DNA from: Candidatus Adiutrix sp.
GTDB taxonomy: Bacteria > Desulfobacterota > Desulfarculia > Adiutricales > Adiutricaceae
Length of the DNA stretch: 47,952 bases
Reading direction: 5' to 3'
NCBI GenBank assembly: GCA_031263565.1
Contig: JAISFR010000072.1
Coordinates: 1-47,952, forward strand
Below, in pieces: positions 18,277 to 33,326 of the stretch (position 1 is its first letter; the number at the start of each line of letters is the position of its first letter). The translations under genes and the position numbers were made by a program. The notes under the pieces are model-generated. The model saw nothing but the letters and a program-made list of their open reading frames with translations. It ran no database searches and was not told where the DNA came from.

Positions 18277-19775
18277 GAGTCGCTCTGATCCAGAGCCGGG
18301 TCGTTGGCGATTGCCCGGCGGAAAACCTGGAAAGCCTCAAAGCCGCTTTGAAACGCCAGGAGACGGAAGGGGTGGAACTGGCCGTCTTCCCCGCCCTGGC
18401 CCTCTCCGGCCGCCTGGGCCCGACCGCCCTGGCCCGGCCCGGCCTGGAGGTTCAATATCAGAAGGTTTGGGGTGATTTTCTGGAAATTTCCAAGACTTAC
18501 CCAAAATTGACCTTGGCCTCCTCCGCCCTTTTTTTTGAAGCCGGCGGGGCGGCCCGGGAAGAGGCTTTCGCGGTCCGGGACGGCCGGCGGCTGGATAAGG
18601 CGGCTGTTTCGGGTCGTCTGTTTTCAGATTTCGGCCTGGAACTGCTTTTGAGAACCAAGGACCTGGCCTTGGCCGCCGAAACCAGGGCCGACGTGATCAT
18701 CAGCCTCGGCAGTCATTTTTACCAGGGCGTCGCCTATCAGCCGCCTTTCCCCGGCCCGGCCCAGGCTTGGCGGATGAACGTCAGCGCCGTGGGCGGCGAA
18801 GGGCCCCGGATTTATGAGGGGGCCACCTGGGTCTTCGATCCGGCCGGTCGCCTCGTGGGCTGGGCGCACGGTTTTGAAAACGCCATGATCGTCCTGGATA
18901 CCGAATCAACGGCCCTCAAAGCCCTGGAGCCTCGGCCGGAGAGGGAGCCGCTGGAAGTTCTCTATCAGGCCCTGAAGACCGGGCTGAGGGATTTCGTCCG
19001 TTCCGCCGGCTTGGAAAAAGTGCTTCTGGGGCTTTCCGGCGGTCTGGATTCGGCCCTGACCGCTGTTTTGGCCGTCGACGCCTTGGGGGCCGACCAGGTG
19101 CTGGCCGTGGCCATGCCTTCGGAATACAATTCGCCGGATAGTCTGAATCTGGCCAGGGAGCTGTCCAAAAACCTGGGCCTGGCTTTTTTGACCATACCCA
19201 TCGACGGCCTTCGGGAGGCCTTTACCCGATCTTTTCTGCTGACCCCCAAGCGGGACGAGCAGGCCGGCCATCTGGCCGAGGAAAATATCCAGGCCCGCAT
19301 CCGGGGGGTGATTTTGATGTATCTGGCCAACCGGGAAGGGCGGCTGCTGCTGGCCACCGGCAATAAAAGCGAGGCGGCCATGGGTTACGCCACGCTCTAC
19401 GGCGACACCTGCGGGGCTATGGCCCCCATCGGCGACGTCTACAAGAGCCGCCTTTTCGAACTGGCCCGACACCTCAACCGGGCGAAGGAACGTATTCCGG
19501 AGGGCATCATCAGCCGGCCGCCCTCGGCCGAACTGCGGCCCGGCCAGAAAGACGAGGACGCCCTGCCGCCCTACGCCGTCCTGGACGACATTCTCCACCG
19601 TCATCTGGAAGGTCGGCGCAGCGGCTCCCAGGTGGCCAGGGAGGGCGGCCACCCGGCCACGACCGTGGCCTGGGTGCTTAGTTCACTTAAGAAAAGCGCC
19701 TTTAAGCGGGCCCAGGAGCCTTTCAGCCTGATCGCCTCCGGCTGCCCTCTGGGCGGCTTTGACTGGCCGGCCTGA
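18273..19775 (+). CDS. nadE: NAD+ synthetase with a degenerate glutaminase (nitrilase-fold) domain
   Basis: 500 residues. The C-terminal part (from about 225) is a complete NAD synthetase: PP-loop SGGLDSA (255-261), the ATP/NaAD segment PSEYNSPDSL, ATGNKSEAAMGYATLYGD, and DVYKSRLFELA. It converts deamido-NAD to NAD with ATP and ammonia. The N-terminal domain has the layout of the carbon-nitrogen hydrolase that normally supplies ammonia from glutamine, but the catalytic residues are gone. The expected Glu is Ala41 (FPALALSG) and no Cys exists between residues 15 and 250, so the ICED-type nucleophile is absent. The enzyme should therefore use free ammonia, with the N-terminal domain kept for structure or regulation. 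The gene is translationally coupled to rarA by a four-base overlap. Confidence 0.93.
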   Translation: MRVALIQSRVVGDCPAENLESLKAALKRQETEGVELAVFPALALSGRLGPTALARPGLEVQYQKVWGDFLEISKTYPKLTLASSALFFEAGGAAREEAFAVRDGRRLDKAAVSGRLFSDFGLELLLRTKDLALAAETRADVIISLGSHFYQGVAYQPPFPGPAQAWRMNVSAVGGEGPRIYEGATWVFDPAGRLVGWAHGFENAMIVLDTESTALKALEPRPEREPLEVLYQALKTGLRDFVRSAGLEKVLLGLSGGLDSALTAVLAVDALGADQVLAVAMPSEYNSPDSLNLARELSKNLGLAFLTIPIDGLREAFTRSFLLTPKRDEQAGHLAEENIQARIRGVILMYLANREGRLLLATGNKSEAAMGYATLYGDTCGAMAPIGDVYKSRLFELARHLNRAKERIPEGIISRPPSAELRPGQKDEDALPPYAVLDDILHRHLEGRRSGSQVAREGGHPATTVAWVLSSLKKSAFKRAQEPFSLIASGCPLGGFDWPA

Positions 19776-19842
19776 TTTTGCTTTTTCGATCGAAAATCGG
19801 AACCCTAAGCCGGTCGTCCGCTTCCGTTTTCAGAGGTTTCCC

Positions 19843-20118
19843 ATGATTAAAAAAAACGACGCGCCTTTGAGACGGCTGGTCAATAAACTTTTTTTCTCTT
19901 TCTGTCTGGCCCTTTCGGGGTCGTGGGCCCTGATCGTCTCCCGGATCAATCTGGGTCTTCTGGATGACGCCCTGGCCAGGAAGGCCCTGGGCCAGTTCTA
20001 CCTGGATCTCGGCGGCCTGTCGCTCTTTTTGCTGGGCCTTTTCATGGGCCTCTACTACCGTCTGCGGCTCACGCCCAGGTTGAGGCGCATAGAAGAACTG
20101 GGCATGGACCGCTGGTAG
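19843..20118 (+). CDS. Small two-helix membrane protein of unknown function
   Basis: 91 residues. A short basic N-terminus (MIKKNDAPLRRLVNK) precedes a hydrophobic helix at about 16-36, a polar loop of some 20 residues, and a second helix (LSLFLLGLFMGLYYRL) before a basic C-terminus. Both ends are probably cytoplasmic by the positive-inside rule. The ATG follows AGAGG by 5 bases; the frame is open further upstream, into the nadE end, without a better start. No family is recognised. It is 67 bases after nadE and may share its transcript. Confidence 0.65.
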   Translation: MIKKNDAPLRRLVNKLFFSFCLALSGSWALIVSRINLGLLDDALARKALGQFYLDLGGLSLFLLGLFMGLYYRLRLTPRLRRIEELGMDRW

Positions 20119-20342: not shown

Positions 20343-20387
20343 AAAGTTTGACGAAATAATTTTCAGCGGCTTGGCAGGGGATTGGAT

Positions 20388-21626
20388 ATGGCTGAAGTCA
20401 CCAGAAGAAGCAATATGAGCATTGAGCAGGTGCTCAAGCCCCAGACCAGGCTAGACCTGATATTTGACGTCGACCTCATCAATGATTACATTGATGTCCG
20501 CAGCGTCATGGTTCAGGAGGTCGGCCCCAGTCAGGTGATCGTCAGCCAGTCCGATCCCCCGATCCTCAAATCAATGGTCGGCCGCTCCCTGGAGGCCACT
20601 TTTGTCCGTCGGGAGCCGGTGACTTCAGAGATCATCCGCTGGGGCTGGAACTGCCAGGTGATGGAACTTATCGGCAATTACCAGTTGCGGCCGGATGATC
20701 CGGAAAGCATTCCGGCGGTGGTCATCAGCCCGCCCGGCCCCGGCAGCCTGACCGAGACCAACGCCCGTATGGATTATCGTCTGAGCATCACCGCCGACCG
20801 CCGAATCTCCATTCAGACCCATCCCTCCTTCGGCCGGGTGACCTTGCTCGATTTTTCGGCCGGCGGGGTGCTGATCGGCATTCCCCGCCCGCCTCAGGCC
20901 AAGGTGGGCATGCGGCTGTGGTTTACGCTTTTTTGCCCGGTCCAGTTCTCCCCCGGGCAGCAGACCACCATCAACGGCGAGGCCGAGGTGGTCCGGGTCA
21001 CCTCCAGCGAAGGTGAACAGTACGCCCGGGTGGGTTTGAAATTCCTGGATCTGGATTTAAGCGCCACCAGGGCTCTGCAAAAAGCCATAAATTTTTATAT
21101 GCTGGAAGAGCAGCGCGGCCGCAATCGCAATATGCCGCCGGCCGACGCCCAGTCTGGCCAACAGCTTCAGCCCGGCCAACAGCTTCAACCCGGCCACCCG
21201 GTTCAACCCGGCCACCCGGCTCAACCCGGCCAACAGATTCAACCCGGCTACCCGGCTCATCCCGGCTACCCGGTTCAACCCGGCCACCCGGTTCAACCCG
21301 GCTACCCGGCTCAACCCGGCCAACAGATTCAACCCGGCTACCCGGTTCAACCCGGCCAACAGGTTCAGTCCGGCCACCCGGCCCGGCCCGGCCGCCCGGT
21401 TCAGCCCGGCCACCCGGCCCGGCCCGGCCACCCGGTTCAACCCGGCCACCCGGCTCAGCCCGGCTACCAGGTTCAACCCGGCCAACAGGTTCAACCCGGT
21501 CATCCGGGCCAACCGGGCCAACCGGGCGCGGCCCCTCCTCAGGGTCCGGCGCTTCAATCCGGGCTTGCTCCTCCCGGCGGTAAAATCCCGGGGGGCGGGA
21601 CCCCGCCCGTCACTCCCGCTTCTTAG
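20388..21626 (+). CDS. PilZ-domain c-di-GMP-binding protein with Pro/Gln/Gly hexapeptide-repeat tail
   Basis: 412 residues. Residues 1-120 form a YcgR-N-like (PilZN) flagellar-brake-type beta domain ([23 protein letters not shown]). The PilZ domain follows, with the c-di-GMP motif RMDYR near residues 127-131 and DFSAGG near 154-159, so both binding motifs look intact. From about residue 258 the protein becomes about 20 tandem copies of a hexapeptide of the form PG-[HYQR]-[PQ]-[VAIL]-Q, ending in a Pro/Gly-rich tail. This tail is likely extended and may serve as a spacer or protein-binding platform. The ATG at 20388 has GGGG 7 bases upstream. No membrane segment is seen. The repeat tail is not a normal part of PilZ proteins. 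Confidence 0.88.
21150..21522 (+). repeat. Coding minisatellite, about 20 units of 18 bp
   Basis: Tandem in-frame 18-bp units of the type CAACCCGGCCACCCGGTT, varying mostly at the fourth to sixth codons (His, Tyr or Gln; Pro or Gln; Val, Ala, Ile or Leu). Because the unit is a multiple of three, changes in copy number would lengthen or shorten the PilZ protein tail without a frameshift. The GC-rich opposite strand is also open through the array, a by-product of the repeat. Confidence 0.9.
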
Positions 21627-26725: not shown

Positions 26726-26954
26726 GGAAAACCCTGCTCCGTTTTAAGGGGTTTCGACCCCCATATCTTAAGGCCGCTTTGAATTTCGCTCCAAGCGGCG
26801 AAATTCAAAGCTCCGGGCGGAAAGCCGCCCGCCAGCCTCCGAGGCCTGGCTCCAGGGCGGTTCTCCGCTCGAACAAGTCCGGGATATTATAGAGCAGTTT
26901 CCTTTCACGGTCATCTCTTTTTTCAGCGATTCCCCGCGGAATAATTCCCGATCC
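26726..26954. other. Non-coding, hairpin-rich stretch between the divergent malY/patB-like and regulator genes
   Basis: The main feature is a perfect 14-bp inverted repeat, 26776-26789 with 26798-26811 (GCTTTGAATTTCGC and its complement, 8-base loop). A GGGCGG/CCGCCC hairpin follows near 26815-26830, and a GGGGT/ACCCC hairpin near 26747-26761 lies just upstream of the minus-strand start. No protein gene is supported. These could be leader structures of the minus-strand gene or operator sites. Confidence 0.45.
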
Positions 26955-26983
26955 TTGAATTGTCCGCCATCTTACAGTAAAAT
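26955..26983 (+). promoter_or_regulatory. Promoter upstream of the regulator leader
   Basis: TTGAAT (26955-26960), 17 bases, TAAAAT (26978-26983). Transcription would begin near 26990, about 26 bases before the leader ORF ATG. TATACGTAATT follows at about 26991-27001 and shares TACGTAATT with the autotransporter promoter region (30081-30090). Confidence 0.6.
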
Positions 26984-27015
26984 GACCAAATATACGTAAT
27001 TCAAGCGGGACGTTT

Positions 27016-27252
<237 letters not shown>

Positions 27253-27253
27253 T

Positions 27254-29923
27254 ATGCCGAACGTGAAGCCAGGCGGCTTGGCCCCCGCGCCCGGGGATGA
27301 AGACGTCCCGTATTTTTCCGAACGCCTGAAAGCCAGGCTGCGCAAAGCTCCGGCCATGCGCGGCATCTTCATTGAAGCCCCGGTCGGCTACGGCAAGACG
27401 ACCGTGGCCGCCGGGTACCTGCGGAGCGCCCTGCCCAAAGGAAGCCTTGTGGTCTGGCACCACTGCCGGCCAGATAGCCCCCCAGCCCTATGGCGCAACC
27501 TGGGCCGCGCCCTGCAAGCCATTGACTCGAAAACCGGGGCGGAGCTTCTGCGTCTCGGTCCTCCTGACGAAGACAGCCTGCGCGATGCGGGCCGGCTGCT
27601 GCGGGGCCTGGTCGGCGCGGCCCCCACCTGGCTGGTGCTGGACGATTTTCACCATCTGGCGGCGCTGGCGCCCGCCGCCGTCTGGCAAGCCCTGCTGGAA
27701 CACGAATGCCCGCATCTGGCTACGGTGCTGATTTCCCGGCCCCTGCCCGAAAATCCCCTGCCCCGCGGAAAAGCCGGCTTTCTGTATCTGGGGGTTGACG
27801 ATCTGCGCCTGACGCCGGAGGAATCCAGGGACTATGCGGCCCAAGCGGGCGCCGCGCTCAGCGGGCAAGAAGCCCGGGAACTGCATCGCCGCGCCGAAGG
27901 CTGGATGTTCGCCCTCTTTCTGCATGTGCGGCACTACCGGGAGAAGAAAAGCTTTGCCCCGGCCTCCGATTTTGAAGGCCTGCTCAGGGCTGAAATCTGG
28001 GACCGGCTGGACGAAGCCGGCCGGGACTTGCTCCAGCGGCTTTCCCCGTTTGAAGCCTTCAGCGCCATCCAGGCCTCCCAATTGCTCCATGTGCCGGAAC
28101 CGCCCGCCGCTCTCCTGGCGGCCTTGGCCTACACGGCTATCCTGCGCTTTGACGACGCCTCCGGCCTGTATTATCCCCACAGCCTCCTTCTGGAATATAC
28201 CCGGAAAACCGTCAATGAGCTGCCCAAAACAGCGCAACGGGAAATTCTCCAGGCCGCCGGCGACTGGTGCGCCGCGAACGGGGAGCGGAAGAAGGCCATT
28301 GCCTGGTATTACCAACTGGAGAATTTTGAAAAGATTCTGGCCCTCGATCTCTCCGGCCTTCCGGACAACCGCCTGCTGGACCTGCCGGATGCCGCCCCCG
28401 GCCGCCCTGACGGTCCGGGCGCGCCCGCCCGGGCCAACGGCGCTGATCCGCCGTCCACTGAGATCTACGCGGACGCCCTGCGGAAAATTGCGGCCCGCTG
28501 TACCCGCGCCATGAAAATCCGGCATCCCCTGTCCGCGATCCAACTGGCCTTTGAATTTTTCGGCCAGGGTCTGTCTGAGGAATATGCCGCCCTGTGCGGG
28601 GAAATGGCCGGACTGGTGGAAACGGAGGTGCCGGAGCGGGAACGGGACTACCTGCGCGGGGAGCTTCTGCTGATGGAAGCCTTCAGGCGCTATAACGACA
28701 TAGCGGAAATGGGCGAACGCATACAAAGGGCCTCGGAACTCACGGGCGGCCAAACCTCGCTTGTGCGCCCGGACAATTCCTGGACCTTCGGCAACGCCTC
28801 GGTCCTCTTCATGTACCACCGCGAAGCCGGGCGCCTGGACGCGGAACTGGCCGACCTGGAACGCTGCTGCCCCCCCTATACCGCCATGAGCCGGGGCCAC
28901 GGCAGCGGCGGCCCGGCCCTCATGCGGGCGGAAGCCCTGCTTAACCGGGGAGAAGCGGAAAAGGCGGAAATTTTCGGCCACCGGGCGCGGCATGAAGCAG
29001 CCGGGCACGGGCAGACCAGCCTCAGCCTCGGGGTGGAACTGTTTTTCGGCCGGCTGGCGGTCCTGCGGGGGGACGGGATGGCCTGTGCCCGGGCGCTCGA
29101 CTCCCTGGCCTCTCTGGCGGAGGAATACCCGCAAAAGTCCAACCGGATGGAGGCGGATATGGCCCGGTCCTTTCTGGCGGGCTTGCTGCACCGCCCGCCG
29201 GAGGCCGCCGCCTGGCTGCGTGACGGACCGCCAGAGGCCTTCAGCAGGCGGCTGTTCACGCAGGCGATCCCCTTCGCGCAGGTCTGCCGCGCCCGCTGCC
29301 TGCTGCTGGACCGTAAGCCGGAAGTTCTGCTCGGCGAAAGCGCCGCCGCGCTCGGCCTGGCCCGGGCTCTGCATTCCACGCCCGCCCTGGTCTACGGCCA
29401 TCTCCACGCGGCGGCCGCCCTGGCTATGCTGGGCGAAGGCCGGGAAGCCGCGTCCGAGTTACGCCAGGCTCTGGATTTGGCCCTGCCGGACGCGCTCTAC
29501 CTGCCCTTGGCGGAACAGTATGACCTGATCGGGCTGCTGCTCACCAAAGCCTTGTCCGGCAAGAAACAGGCTGAAGCTCTGACCAGGGTCGAGGCCTTGG
29601 CGGAACAGATGCGGGCGGGCCGCCAAACCGCGGTCAAAGAAATGCTGGCCCGGGAACAGTTTGACGGCGGGAACGGCCTGAATGAACAAGCCGGGAAAGC
29701 CGATCTGAAAAAGTTTCATTCCTTTGCCGCCCGCTATGATCTGACCGAAAAAGAAACTGAAGTGCTCTCTTATATTCTCCGTAAATTGAGCATTAAAGAA
29801 ATGGCTGAAAACATGGGCATATCCAACCGGGGCGTGGAGAAGCACGTAACCGGGATCAAGGAAAAAACCCGGATCGAACGCCGGCGGCATCTGCCCCGAC
29901 TGTATGCCGACTGGAAGATGTAG
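27254..29923 (+). CDS. MalT/LAL-type LuxR-family ATP-dependent transcriptional regulator
   Basis: 889 residues. The N-terminal ATPase of the STAND/LAL group has Walker A APVGYGKTT (near residues 42-50) and Walker B LVLDDFHHL near residues 127-135. A winged-helix and helical sensor region rich in tetratricopeptide-like helices follows. The C-terminal LuxR helix-turn-helix (residues 829-889) reads LTEKETEVLSYILRKLSIKEMAENMGISNRGVEKHV. Such proteins are ligand- and ATP-activated DNA binders. The ATG at 27254 is chosen because MalT-like proteins begin their homology about 15-20 residues before the P-loop; the frame is open upstream only through a TTG in a terminator. The autotransporter lies immediately downstream and is the natural candidate target. 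Confidence 0.9.
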   Translation: MPNVKPGGLAPAPGDEDVPYFSERLKARLRKAPAMRGIFIEAPVGYGKTTVAAGYLRSALPKGSLVVWHHCRPDSPPALWRNLGRALQAIDSKTGAELLRLGPPDEDSLRDAGRLLRGLVGAAPTWLVLDDFHHLAALAPAAVWQALLEHECPHLATVLISRPLPENPLPRGKAGFLYLGVDDLRLTPEESRDYAAQAGAALSGQEARELHRRAEGWMFALFLHVRHYREKKSFAPASDFEGLLRAEIWDRLDEAGRDLLQRLSPFEAFSAIQASQLLHVPEPPAALLAALAYTAILRFDDASGLYYPHSLLLEYTRKTVNELPKTAQREILQAAGDWCAANGERKKAIAWYYQLENFEKILALDLSGLPDNRLLDLPDAAPGRPDGPGAPARANGADPPSTEIYADALRKIAARCTRAMKIRHPLSAIQLAFEFFGQGLSEEYAALCGEMAGLVETEVPERERDYLRGELLLMEAFRRYNDIAEMGERIQRASELTGGQTSLVRPDNSWTFGNASVLFMYHREAGRLDAELADLERCCPPYTAMSRGHGSGGPALMRAEALLNRGEAEKAEIFGHRARHEAAGHGQTSLSLGVELFFGRLAVLRGDGMACARALDSLASLAEEYPQKSNRMEADMARSFLAGLLHRPPEAAAWLRDGPPEAFSRRLFTQAIPFAQVCRARCLLLDRKPEVLLGESAAALGLARALHSTPALVYGHLHAAAALAMLGEGREAASELRQALDLALPDALYLPLAEQYDLIGLLLTKALSGKKQAEALTRVEALAEQMRAGRQTAVKEMLAREQFDGGNGLNEQAGKADLKKFHSFAARYDLTEKETEVLSYILRKLSIKEMAENMGISNRGVEKHVTGIKEKTRIERRRHLPRLYADWKM

Positions 29924-30286
29924 TTTCCGCCCTTCGCTTCTGAAAAAAATCGGTTGCGGCTTGGGAGACAAAATTACAATAATTTAAACAAATTGACCGG
30001 CAGCCCCGCTGTTTTTTCCAAAAATTGACCTCAAACCCGCACCTTTCCCGCACTGTTCAATTTTTCCACGCCTGATATAATTACGTAATTTTCCAGCATT
30101 TTTCCATGCAGGAGTTGTGTTACGATATGGCGCAGGCTAAACCCCCAGACCTTTATGGTCCTCGTATTTTCAAGGCGGCTTTGTGCGCGGAGCAAGCGTC
30201 TTTACGCTCGTCTGCCGTACCGGCAAAGGGAAGACGCATTGCATTGTGAACCATATATCCGTGACCGCATTCAGAAAGGAGAACCC
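29924..30286 (+). promoter_or_regulatory. Intergenic region with autotransporter promoter elements
   Basis: 363 bases with no gene. TATAAT at 30076-30081 overlaps a perfect palindrome, AATTACGTAATT (30079-30090), suggesting an operator on the -10 box. No good -35 element is seen, which fits an activator-dependent promoter. TACGTAATT recurs in the regulator's own promoter region at about 26993-27001. A strong ribosome site, AAGGAG (30275-30280), precedes the autotransporter ATG. Confidence 0.5.
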
Positions 30287-31369
30287 ATGAACCATACCCT
30301 GTCCCGCACCGGTTTGTATTTTTTCGCGGCCTGCTTTCTGGCCTGGAGTCTCTTTTCGCCGGGCGGAGCAATGGCCGCGAACACCACGATCAACGACAAC
30401 ACCAGTGGTCCATATACTGGCCTCTATGGCAACGACGGAACCGCGACCACCCCTACTGCTGACACATATGCCAGCGGCAACATGCTTGTTCTCGGCAACG
30501 GTTACACCGGCCCGACCATTACCGATACTTCTGTCGTGACAGTTGCCGGCGGGTATGCTCCCGGCAACTCCAACGGCGACTCCAGCAGCAACACGCTGAC
30601 CATCAACAGCGGGACCTCTTTTACTGCTACCGGCTTTACCAATATTTATGGCGGGAGGGTGGCAGCAGGCAGCGGGAACGCCGCTGGCAATACCGTTACT
30701 ATGGGGGATTTCACACAAGGGAGTGGCAATGTTGTTGTTTATGGCGGACGCGCTCACGGCAGCGGAAATGCTTCGACCAATGGAGTTACCATCGGTTCCG
30801 GCAACACAAATGATTTTTCTGGGATTTACGGTGCTTATGCCAATAGCGGAAATGCCATAAGCAATACTGTAACCATCAACGGCGGCGGACAAATCGCCTT
30901 TGTTAATGGCGGTTATTCCGCTGACGGCAATGCCGGAGGCTCTGGAGTCGGCAACGTCGTCAACATCAGCGGCGGCAACGCAAATATCCTGAACGGTATT
31001 GGGGGAGGAAACAGCAACAGCGGTAGCAGTGGCTCCGCCAGCTACAACGAGGTGAATATCGGGAGCGGCTATACAGGCACAATCGGCGGCAATGTCCACG
31101 GCGGGTGGGTAAGCGGCGGCAGCGGCAACGCGGAGCATAATAGCGTCACCATCGCCGGAGGGACTCTCCAAGGCGGCGCTGCCGTCATAGGCGGCCACTC
31201 CACCAATGGCGCCGCCACCGACAACACCGTCAGCATCAGCGGCGGCAGGGTAGCCGGCGATATTCGCGGCGGGAGCACAACTACAGGCTCCGCTACCGGC
31301 AACACCGTCAGCATCACCACCACCGGCGAAACCTATCTGAACATCTACGGCGGGTATGGGGGGGGGTAG
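30287..31369 (+). CDS. Autotransporter, N-terminal part (signal peptide and passenger), out of frame at a G9 tract
   Basis: 360 codons from the ATG with a strong AAGGAG site to a TAG right after a G9 run. A Sec signal peptide (cleavage after AMAA) is followed by a passenger of imperfect repeats of about 25-30 residues. Each combines an IYGG-type turn, a GSGNA segment and an NTVTI strand, as in right-handed beta-helix adhesins. Sequence up to the G tract is IYGGYGGG. With eight Gs the frame would continue as SGDLFTGNTLNL, which is the expected next part of the repeat, into the 31356-33326 frame. As sequenced, the product is a truncated, secreted passenger without a translocator. I read this as a phase-OFF allele, though a homopolymer sequencing error is possible. 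Confidence 0.88.
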   Translation: MNHTLSRTGLYFFAACFLAWSLFSPGGAMAANTTINDNTSGPYTGLYGNDGTATTPTADTYASGNMLVLGNGYTGPTITDTSVVTVAGGYAPGNSNGDSSSNTLTINSGTSFTATGFTNIYGGRVAAGSGNAAGNTVTMGDFTQGSGNVVVYGGRAHGSGNASTNGVTIGSGNTNDFSGIYGAYANSGNAISNTVTINGGGQIAFVNGGYSADGNAGGSGVGNVVNISGGNANILNGIGGGNSNSGSSGSASYNEVNIGSGYTGTIGGNVHGGWVSGGSGNAEHNSVTIAGGTLQGGAAVIGGHSTNGAATDNTVSISGGRVAGDIRGGSTTTGSATGNTVSITTTGETYLNIYGGYGGG

Positions 31370-33326
31370 CGGCGACCTGTTCACCGGCAACACCCTGAAT
31401 CTCGCCGCCGGGAATGCAGTCAGTTCCGTGCACAATACGGCTGTCCTCAACTTTACTTCCGGCGGAAGCGCGGGTATCAACACTCTGGACACCACAGCCA
31501 CCGGAGCCGTAGGCAGCCCCAAAATGACCCTCAACACCTATACTCACGCCGTCGATTTCGGCGGGGTCATCAACGGCACGGGCGGCATCGACAAAACCGG
31601 CGCAGGCACCCTGACTCTGAGCGGAACAAACACTTACAGCGGCGGAACCACCGTGAGCGCCGGAACCCTGGCCGGGAATATCGCTTCCGGCACGGACCTT
31701 ACCGTGGCAAGCGGCGCGACCTATGACGGAAGCGGTGCGGCCCGTTCCGTGGGCGCTCTTGCCGATGCGGGTTCAATCATCAACACCCACGGCCTGACCG
31801 CGCAAAGCGGCTCTTTCAGTGGCGTCATTTCAGGCGCGGGCGGCCTGACCAAGACCGGAGCCGGAACCCTGACCCTGAGCGGCACGAATACCTTCACCGG
31901 ATCTCTCAGCATTGACGCGGGCGGTCTGACCCTCGGCGCGGGCGGCTCTTTGGCTACGAACTCTCTGTCTCTGGCCACGAACACAGTCTTTGACTATTCC
32001 GCCGCTTCATACGCCTTCCATAACCTGACCGTGCGCGGCCTGAATACGCACATCGTCCCCAGCGCGGCGGGCGCGGATTTCAGCGGCGCGAACCTTGCCT
32101 ATATTGTGCCGCAGACAGCCGCGAACGGAGCCACCCTGCTTACCGTACAAGGTGGGGCGACCATTGACGCGGCCACCGCCGTCAGCCTCGCTTACGCTTC
32201 GGGCAGGCCAAACATCAACGCGGGCGAAGGTTTCACCTTACTGAACGCTACAACTCTGACGGACAGCGGCTTTACGCAGCTTACCGTACAGACCCCGAGT
32301 GGCGATATCTACACCCTGAATGTTTCCGGCACGCAGCTTCTGGCCGTGCTGCAACAGCTTTCCCCCACCGGCCCGGCCTATGAGCGCCTCAAAGCCTATG
32401 CCGAAAGCCGGGCCGCGTCCCTGGCCTTCGCCAACCAGGGCCTTGATTTTATCCTGAACCGGGGTTTCGGTTCCGCCCTGGCCACGACAGCGGGACCGGG
32501 TTTCCGCTTCGGCAGTTTCGGGGGCCTGGGCGGCGGCTGGTCGCGCTATACCACAGGTTCACATGTGGACGTTTCCGGCCTGTCGCTGTTGGCGGGTCTG
32601 GCCCTCGGTAATGACCTAGCCCCCGGACGCCTGACCCTCGGGGCCTTCTTCGAGGGCGGATGGGGCAATTACAACTCCCATAACAGCTTCAGCAACGCGG
32701 CCTCCGTGGACGGCAAGGGGGACAGTTCCTACTACGGCGGCGGCATCCTGGGCCGCTACGACCTGACGGAAGGCGCTCTCTCCGGCCTGTATTTCGACGC
32801 TTCGGCCCGCCTGGGCCGGACGGAAACGGATTTCCGCAGCGGCGACATCCGGTACAACGGCTGGAACGCCAATTTTGAAAGCTCATCCCTTTACTATGGC
32901 CTGCACGGCGGGTTTGGCTATGTCTGGAGCTTTACGGACCAGGCTGCCCTCGACCTGTCCGCGAAACTGCTCTGGACACGGCAGAAAGGCGACAGCCTGA
33001 CCGTGTACCAGGACCGCCTGCGCTTCAAGGACGCCGATTCCCTGCGTACCCGCCTGGGCGGGCGCTTCGCCTACTCCGTCAACGACTACGTCAGCCCCTA
33101 TCTCGGCGCGTATTGGGAACACGAGTTCGACGGCCAACAGCGTATCGCGGTGAACGGCCAGCGCCTTTCTTCCCCGTCCCTCAAGGGCGATACGGGCCTG
33201 GCTGAACTCGGCCTCTCCCTTAAGCCTTCGCCAAGCCTGCCCCTGTCCTTTGATTTGGGGGTGCAGGGCTATGTGGGGACAAGGGAAGGCGTGGCGGGGA
33301 GCTTGCAGATCAAGTTGGAATTTTAG
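31356..33326 (+). CDS. Autotransporter, C-terminal part (passenger end, PATR repeats and beta-barrel)
   Basis: The frame is open from the G tract to 33326; the apparent ATG inside the tract is not a real start. Two passenger-associated transport repeats (GIDKTGAGTLTLSGTNTYSGG and GLTKTGAGTLTLSGTNTFTGS) lie near 31590-31910. A linker helix (YERLKAYAESRAASLAFANQ) leads to a classical type Va barrel of about 270 residues ending in KLEF, with the C-terminal Phe required for Bam-dependent insertion. Joined to 30287-31366 by loss of one G (or gain of two), it makes a full autotransporter of about 1,012 residues. Surface display or adhesion is the expected role; the ligand is unknown. Confidence 0.9.
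   Translation: MGGGSGDLFTGNTLNLAAGNAVSSVHNTAVLNFTSGGSAGINTLDTTATGAVGSPKMTLNTYTHAVDFGGVINGTGGIDKTGAGTLTLSGTNTYSGGTTVSAGTLAGNIASGTDLTVASGATYDGSGAARSVGALADAGSIINTHGLTAQSGSFSGVISGAGGLTKTGAGTLTLSGTNTFTGSLSIDAGGLTLGAGGSLATNSLSLATNTVFDYSAASYAFHNLTVRGLNTHIVPSAAGADFSGANLAYIVPQTAANGATLLTVQGGATIDAATAVSLAYASGRPNINAGEGFTLLNATTLTDSGFTQLTVQTPSGDIYTLNVSGTQLLAVLQQLSPTGPAYERLKAYAESRAASLAFANQGLDFILNRGFGSALATTAGPGFRFGSFGGLGGGWSRYTTGSHVDVSGLSLLAGLALGNDLAPGRLTLGAFFEGGWGNYNSHNSFSNAASVDGKGDSSYYGGGILGRYDLTEGALSGLYFDASARLGRTETDFRSGDIRYNGWNANFESSSLYYGLHGGFGYVWSFTDQAALDLSAKLLWTRQKGDSLTVYQDRLRFKDADSLRTRLGGRFAYSVNDYVSPYLGAYWEHEFDGQQRIAVNGQRLSSPSLKGDTGLAELGLSLKPSPSLPLSFDLGVQGYVGTREGVAGSLQIKLEF
31358..31366 (+). repeat. Homopolymeric G9 tract at the autotransporter frame break
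   Basis: Nine consecutive Gs, with the TAG stop directly after them in the frame of the signal peptide. Eight or eleven Gs would join the two halves in frame. Poly-G tracts of 8-12 are the classic contingency-locus element in Campylobacter, Helicobacter and Neisseria surface genes. Confidence 0.95.

What the first reader, a model, noticed from the sequence alone, without database searches (positions are those of the whole stretch)
26941..33326. Two-tier contingency locus: repeat-controlled regulator next to repeat-controlled autotransporter
A dinucleotide repeat in front of the regulator and a mononucleotide repeat inside its neighbouring surface protein would give at least four expression states from two independent slippery sites. 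The TACGTAATT motif occurs near both promoters (about 26993 and 30082), hinting that the regulator controls both. A paired arrangement like this is, to my knowledge, not described for this group.
Basis: partly seen in the sequence, partly recalled or inferred. Interest (0 to 1): 0.85.

Follow-up and report, generated by a model that had tools for sequence, protein, structure and literature searches.

The report
Slippery leader switch before surface-protein regulator
The CA repeat in front of this regulator belongs to a previously undescribed, many-copy family of short translated leaders with a slippery repeat and two terminators, which probably flips surface and signalling genes on and off in gut bacteria related to Desulfovibrio.

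Summary
The two repeats are real: (CA)14.5 at 27086-27114 before a MalT/LAL-type LuxR regulator, and G9 at 31358-31366, where an autotransporter changes frame. The shared TACGTAATT motif is chance-level and not conserved in relatives.

The CA tract is not a promoter repeat. It lies inside a translated leader ORF (27016-27252), followed by two terminator hairpins and then the regulator ATG. This leader belongs to a dispersed family absent from Rfam. In an unnamed, probably Desulfovibrionaceae family, single genomes carry up to 23 matches. Copies share the peptide "...GLIFA(T)(HT)n", an in-frame ATG, covarying tandem terminators and a co-directional downstream gene (chemoreceptors, HD-GYP regulators, glycosyltransferases, outer-membrane proteins). 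A covariance model built without the window finds this leader at 42.6 bits. The repeat unit can also be CT. Orthologous copies differ in repeat number and in whether the leader frame crosses the terminators.

Most likely mechanism: slippage sets the leader frame, so the ribosome blocks or permits termination. This logic is proven for the GCAGA leaders of Streptococcus gallolyticus pil1/pil3; here it appears spread across genomes. The regulator-autotransporter pair recurs in two relatives. Control of the autotransporter by the regulator, and G-tract switching, are untested.

The parts
26955..26983 (+). promoter-like TTGAAT-17-TAAAAT for the leader/regulator transcript
   Evidence: consensus scan only, 9 of 12 matches; not proof of function
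26993..27001 (+).
27016..27252 (+). leader ORF, 78 aa, MVRKSIPLSWNAQAGIDGAGLIFAHTHTHTHTHLLAHRQ...; stop TGA 27250-27252 one base before the regulator ATG
   Evidence: translation; family-wide in-frame ATG and absence of in-frame stops; peptide shared with about 50 copies
27086..27114 (+). (CA)14.5 slippery repeat encoding His-Thr repeats in the leader ORF
27119..27121 (+). TAG that ends the leader in the one length class that does not reach the hairpins; also closes the regulator frame to upstream fusion
27137..27168 (+). terminator-like hairpin 1 plus T run (CCGCGCCCGGTTTCAAGTCCGGCGCGG TTTTT), -16.9 kcal/mol
   Evidence: homologous hairpin covaries across family
27195..27226 (+). terminator-like hairpin 2 plus T run (GGCCCCGCTTCCCTCAGAAGGCGGGGC TTTTT), -18.7 kcal/mol
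   Evidence: 8 of 10 homologous pairs show compensatory changes
27120..27229 (+). match of covariance model R1 (family's post-repeat region; window not used in training)
   Evidence: 42.6 bits, E 2.7e-11 and 3.3e-10 in the whole genome
27254..29923 (+). MalT/LAL-type (STAND ATPase + LuxR HTH) transcriptional regulator, 889 aa
30079..30090 (.). palindrome AATTACGTAATT (contains TACGTAATT copy 2) upstream of the autotransporter
   Evidence: not significant, not conserved
30287..31369 (+). autotransporter, N-terminal half (signal peptide MNHTLSRTGLYFFAACFLAWSLFSPGGAMAA, passenger), frame ends just after the G tract
31358..31366 (+). G9 tract at which the autotransporter frame breaks (consensus is out of frame)
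31356..33326 (+). autotransporter, C-terminal half (passenger-associated repeats and outer-membrane beta-barrel)
   Evidence: PATR 64.1 bits, TIGR01414 34.9 bits

Best explanation
The CA repeat sits inside a translated leader ORF that belongs to a dispersed family of phase-variable attenuators. Transcription starts before 27016 and the ribosome translates the leader through (CA)n. Slippage changes n and thus the reading frame after the repeat. In one length class the ribosome stops at TAG 27119-27121, the two downstream hairpins form and transcription ends before the regulator (OFF). In the other two classes the leader is translated across both hairpins and ends next to, or overlapping, the regulator ATG, so termination is blocked and the regulator may also be translationally coupled (ON). 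The assembled sequence is in an ON class. The MalT/LAL regulator probably then influences the adjacent autotransporter, which has its own, independent G9 frame switch and is out of frame in this assembly. Shown by sequence: membership of the leader in the family, the translated leader, the conserved hairpins, the frame logic, variation of repeat number between orthologous copies. Inferred: termination and antitermination, slippage within a population, regulator action on the autotransporter, reversibility of the G9 break.
For: Family: 58 hits to TTTGCN{1,2}(CA)7 in 21 of 288 genomes of one family, 2 for the reversed control pattern. Model R1, trained on 34 elements without the window, finds the window (42.6 bits) and own contig C65 (54.8 bits) as the two best sites in the 2.97 Mb genome, the same two loci that carry all long CA repeats. 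R1 matches up to 23, 19 and 18 times in single genomes. Leader translated: ATG in frame in 45 of 55 copies against 7 and 8 in the other frames; stops within 60 nt upstream in 6 of 55 against 40 and 46. Hairpins covary: 0 of 500 shuffles reach the observed values on five measures; slid structures pair 39-51% against 86%. Attenuator position: 24 of 30 co-directional downstream ORFs have Pfam families against 1 of 23 antisense ORFs. Repeat length varies: the same HD-GYP regulator gene has n of about 18 and 16 (reads through) in two species and 15 (stops) in a third; a sulfatase-modifying-factor gene likewise 29, 24 and 10. Unit varies: (CT)35 in L236, (CT)20 in L197, so repeat length, not the His-Thr peptide, seems to matter. 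Precedent proven in S. gallolyticus pil1 (PMC3894217). Pair conserved in L013 and L015.
Against: No expression data; no within-strain repeat variation could be tested (one genome per species). Two of three length classes are open in the window, so the switch is asymmetric. Some family copies have short or interrupted repeats (L208, L213, L230, L233), so slippage cannot be essential in all. L016 keeps the regulator but has lost the repeat and hairpin 1. The regulator occurs without an adjacent autotransporter in L014 and L017. The TACGTAATT link fails. The frameshift at G9 could be a plain inactivation.
Confidence: 0.66

Rival explanations
1. The element is a stand-alone small RNA or small-protein gene with its own terminator; downstream genes are bystanders.
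For: Two strong terminators follow the ORF; spacing to the downstream gene varies from about 80 to 400 nt and more; downstream genes are very diverse.
Against: Downstream genes are almost always co-directional (24 of 30 sense against 1 of 23 antisense ORFs with a Pfam family) and rich in sensing and surface functions; in the window the leader stop lies one base before the regulator ATG.
Confidence: 0.17
2. Classical amino-acid attenuator: the His-Thr codons sense charged tRNA-His or tRNA-Thr and the CA length is incidental.
For: A short leader peptide with runs of His and Thr codons before terminators is the layout of his/thr leaders (own knowledge; for the layout).
Against: The unit is CT (Leu-Ser) in L236 and L197; no His/Thr biosynthesis genes seen downstream; in many copies the leader frame stops before the hairpins.
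Confidence: 0.06
3. The CA repeat changes promoter spacing or DNA shape, as in classical promoter repeats.
For: It is upstream of the start codon; dinucleotide promoter repeats are known in other bacteria (own knowledge).
Against: It lies about 100 nt downstream of the promoter-like hexamers, inside a conserved translated ORF and before terminators.
Confidence: 0.05
4. The elements are a mobile or decaying repeat family with no regulatory role; CA runs are neutral microsatellites.
For: Many copies per genome; some copies degenerate; found in two families of one phylum.
Against: Selection on ATG position, open frame and base pairing; fixed orientation relative to genes.
Confidence: 0.06
5. The autotransporter is a pseudogene that lost its frame at a homopolymer; G9 is not a switch (concerns only the second repeat, so it is compatible with the main explanation of the leader).
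For: G9 is not rare in this genome; related autotransporters in L015 and in own contig C35 lack a G tract at the matching place or begin just past it.
Against: Both halves are otherwise intact and the break is exactly at the tract.
Confidence: 0.4

Closest known systems
Streptococcus gallolyticus pil1 and pil3 leaders (GCAGA repeats; PMC3894217)
   Same: Translated leader ORF containing a slippery repeat, terminator between leader and gene, repeat number sets whether the leader ends before or beyond the hairpin; surface genes regulated.
   Different: Unrelated sequence and phylum; CA (also CT) unit; two tandem terminators; conserved leader peptide; up to about 20 matches per genome, many before sensors and regulators; mechanism not tested here.
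E. coli his/thr/trp-type leader-peptide attenuators
   Same: Short leader peptide before an intrinsic terminator.
   Different: Here frame, not ribosome stalling on scarce codons, is the likely signal.
Repeat-controlled autotransporters of Campylobacter (poly-G; PMC7168839) and Neisseria
   Same: Homopolymer inside an autotransporter reading frame.
   Different: Here combined with a neighbouring regulator under a separate repeat-bearing leader.
LAL/MalT regulators (large ATP-binding LuxR family)
   Same: N-terminal ATPase, long helical middle, C-terminal LuxR HTH.
   Different: Divergent from MalT (75 of the required 537 bits); next to an autotransporter.

Membership tests
Dispersed GLIFA-(HT)n leader family (defined here) | conserved leader peptide ending GLIFA before the repeat, with in-frame ATG | tested here: met
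   window leader MVRKSIPLSWNAQAGIDGAGLIFA-HTHT; ATG 66 nt before TTTGC; nearest look-alike L163 MRKVVLFSWNSMTGIESSGPLFA
Dispersed GLIFA-(HT)n leader family (defined here) | tandem terminator region after the repeat | tested here: met
   R1, trained without the window, 42.6 bits, E 3.3e-10 in the genome
Dispersed GLIFA-(HT)n leader family (defined here) | co-directional gene downstream | tested here: met
   regulator ATG 27254, 140 nt after the repeat
S. gallolyticus-type phase-variable attenuator | slippery repeat inside a translated leader ORF | tested here: met
   family frame statistics
S. gallolyticus-type phase-variable attenuator | repeat number decides whether the leader ends before or beyond the terminator | tested here: met
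   in-silico frames of the window leader; ortholog comparison
S. gallolyticus-type phase-variable attenuator | repeat number changes in a population and changes transcription | not testable with these tools
   one genome per species; no RNA data
Known RNA family (Rfam 15) | match above gathering score | tested here: not met
   none in four element loci; none near the leader in the window
MalT/LAL regulators | ATPase domain plus C-terminal LuxR HTH | tested here: met
   GerE 30.1 bits (cut-off 23.5); AAA_16/AAA_22 at E 1e-4 but below their cut-offs; MalT model E 3.5e-21 but below its cut-off; MalT structure 8bob E 3.4e-5
Classical (type Va) autotransporter | signal peptide, passenger repeats, C-terminal beta-barrel | tested here: met
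   PATR and TIGR01414 on the second half; signal peptide read from sequence
Classical (type Va) autotransporter | single intact reading frame | tested here: not met
   frame broken at G9 in this assembly; intact relatives exist (L015)
his/thr amino-acid attenuator | downstream genes of the same amino-acid pathway | tested here: not met

The most novel reading that the evidence does not exclude
A previously undescribed, portable family of repeat-controlled attenuators forms a genome-wide set of stochastic switches in gut Desulfobacterota, placed mainly before sensors, regulators and surface genes; in this window it sets a regulator stochastically, while the adjacent autotransporter has a second independent switch, giving a two-tier system.
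Probability: 0.5. Interest if true: 0.85.

Novelty: new variant of a known kind. Interest (0 to 1): 0.74.

Why it matters
Phase variation by leader-peptide attenuation is, in the papers I could search, known from two pilus loci of one Streptococcus. If the reading is right, an unrelated lineage has turned the same logic into a dispersed cassette with up to about 20 copies per genome and swappable repeat units. It would give a sequence signature for predicting the switchable gene set of uncultured gut bacteria from DNA alone, and would extend stochastic switching to chemoreceptors, HD-GYP regulators and transcription factors, so that one slippage event could change many genes.

Tried and rejected
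TACGTAATT as operator: shared 9-mers arise in 34% of shuffles, genome count is not enriched, sites not conserved. Fusion of the leader ORF to the regulator by slippage: the regulator frame has TAG straight after the repeat, so no length fuses them. His/Thr sensing: repeat unit changes to CT in other copies. Codon-position conservation of the leader was uninformative (third positions are not less conserved), so the translation claim rests on ATG and stop statistics only. The G014 hit to the CA pattern lies in AT-rich DNA without the element. Three viral-contig scans for the CA leader found nothing. CM hits below about 27 bits in G001-G036 look like chance terminators. Papers: no combination of Desulfovibrio with phase variation and dinucleotide repeats was found.
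Full report
OBSERVATION. The window carries (CA)14.5 at 27086-27114 and G9 at 31358-31366. Between them lies an 889-aa regulator (27254-29923) with an N-terminal ATPase region and a C-terminal LuxR HTH, related to MalT. The G9 tract is where the autotransporter frame breaks: 404 aa before, 656 aa after. The second part has PATR repeats and a beta-barrel. About 21 loci in this genome have G runs of 9 or more, mostly in intact genes, so the tract length alone is not evidence. TACGTAATT is not significant: 3 strand matches at 2 sites in the genome against 5.9 expected; 672 of 2000 shuffled pairs share a 9-mer.

THE CA REPEAT IS IN A LEADER. The repeat lies about 100 nt downstream of the promoter-like site 26955-26983, inside an ORF that starts at ATG 27016 and reads MVRKSIPLSWNAQAGIDGAGLIFAHTHTHTHTHLLAHRQ... 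to TGA 27250-27252, one base before the regulator ATG 27254. Two stable hairpins with T runs lie between repeat and regulator (27137-27168, 27195-27226; -16.9 and -18.7 kcal/mol). The regulator frame has TAG straight after the repeat, so slippage cannot fuse leader and regulator.

IT BELONGS TO A FAMILY. The only other locus with a long CA repeat in this genome (contig C65) has the leader MKVQAKKVFRSWEKQAERVEFFSPGLIFATHTHTHTHTHTRNSAL, and a genome of another genus (G018) has MKARKKDPLLPWKRECARAETSGFGLIFAHTHT.... A pattern search in the family of G354 (288 genomes, unnamed; probably Desulfovibrionaceae, inference) found 58 hits in 21 genomes, 2 for the reversed control. The copies share leader peptide, repeat, then AACxCCGCCxxATAACGCGC-hairpin-TTTT and GGCCCTGTYTCC-TTCG-GGAGACAGGGCC-TTTT. 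Model R1, from 34 copies without the window, C65 or L013, ranks C65 (54.8 bits) and the window (42.6 bits) as the two best sites in the genome and finds L013 (24 bits). In 24 chosen genomes it matches up to 23 times in one genome, and not at all in G698, G354 and G669; matches below about 27 bits are probably chance. Rfam has no such family.

THE LEADER IS TRANSLATED AND THE HAIRPINS ARE RNA. Of 55 copies, 45 have an in-frame ATG 55-96 nt upstream of TTTGC against 7 and 8 in the other frames; 6 have an in-frame stop in the last 60 nt against 40 and 46. The two helices pair in 86% of cells against 39-51% when slid, with 38 compensatory cells and 0 of 500 shuffles as high on any measure.

THE REPEAT SETS THE FRAME. 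In silico, one CA length class of the window leader ends at 27121, before hairpin 1; the other two end at 27252 or 27266, beyond hairpin 2. The assembled length is of the second kind. Across 56 distinct copies, 23 leaders read 40 nt or more past the repeat and the rest stop earlier; 51 copies have at least one closed frame. Orthologous loci differ: the HD-GYP response-regulator gene has n of about 18 (L185) and 16 (L190), both reading through, and 15 (L138), stopping; the sulfatase-modifying-factor gene has 29 (through), 24 and 10 (stops). The unit can change: (CT)35 in L236 and (CT)20 in L197; shorter TA in L195 and TACC near a similar terminator in L227 are less certain.

WHAT IT PRECEDES. 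Downstream genes are co-directional; 24 of 30 scanned have Pfam families, against 1 of 23 antisense ORFs. They include chemoreceptors, HD-GYP and GGDEF regulators, kinases, a sigma-54 activator, glycosyltransferases, UDP-galactopyranose mutase, FecR, TonB-receptor and outer-membrane proteins, lipoproteins and solute-binding proteins. L182 precedes an exported protein whose signal peptide resembles that of the window autotransporter. The choice of downstream ORFs was mine, so the proportions are indicative.

THE PAIR. L013 (record titled Desulfovibrio sp.) has the regulator at 73% and the same autotransporter start (about 83% DNA identity) cut by the contig end, with an unidentified 465-aa gene between. 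L015 (Azoarcus sp. MAG) has the regulator (51%) followed 0.3 kb downstream by an intact autotransporter (40% over the barrel region) without leader or G tract. L014 and L017 have the regulator without a neighbouring autotransporter (in L014 uvrB is next). The pair is thus recurrent but not obligatory, and it occurs without either repeat.

MECHANISM AND STATUS. The layout equals that proven for S. gallolyticus pil1, where GCAGA repeat changes lengthen a leader peptide and ribosomes prevent the terminator (PMC3894217). That it works the same here is inference. The regulator controlling the autotransporter is plausible from the recurring pair but untested. Whether G9 is a switch or a lesion cannot be told from one assembly.

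LIMITS. One genome per species; MAG assemblies; E-values from a shortly calibrated model; family names of most genomes hidden. Searches of open-access papers found no report of this family, which does not prove there is none.

Noticed in passing
G000:C24:5850-5864 (L080, 4351-4365): A G15 tract, the longest G run seen in this genome, at a frame change between a 318-codon and a 250-codon open frame with glycine-rich repeats; no PHROG match. A second candidate G-tract switch.
   Followed up: partly
window 21166-21525: 18-bp unit (TTCAACCCGGCCACCCGG on + strand) repeated 20 times near the C-terminus of a 414-aa ORF (20382-21626), giving Gln/His/Pro/Gly-rich hexapeptide repeats.
   Followed up: partly
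G698:C6:175001 and C11:93078 (L171, L172): CA repeats directly inside the 5' coding end of two phage-tail-collar-like genes (Collar domain found in L171), preceded by a leader ending in FATHT, without the tandem terminators: looks like ordinary translational switching built from the same start.
   Followed up: partly
G464:C31 (L227): (TACC)10 tetranucleotide repeat just before a terminator resembling the family's second hairpin.
   Followed up: no
L018 (Clostridium citroniae) 19290-20051: A stretch similar to the L015 autotransporter passenger about 7 kb from a 37%-identical regulator in a Gram-positive genome: the regulator may keep company with such surface repeats more widely.
   Followed up: no
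L013:5885-7282: 465-aa ORF between regulator and autotransporter with no Pfam or NCBIfam match.
   Followed up: partly
window 29924-30214: AT-rich stretch before the autotransporter that has no counterpart in L013; possible site of replacement of the intervening gene.
   Followed up: no
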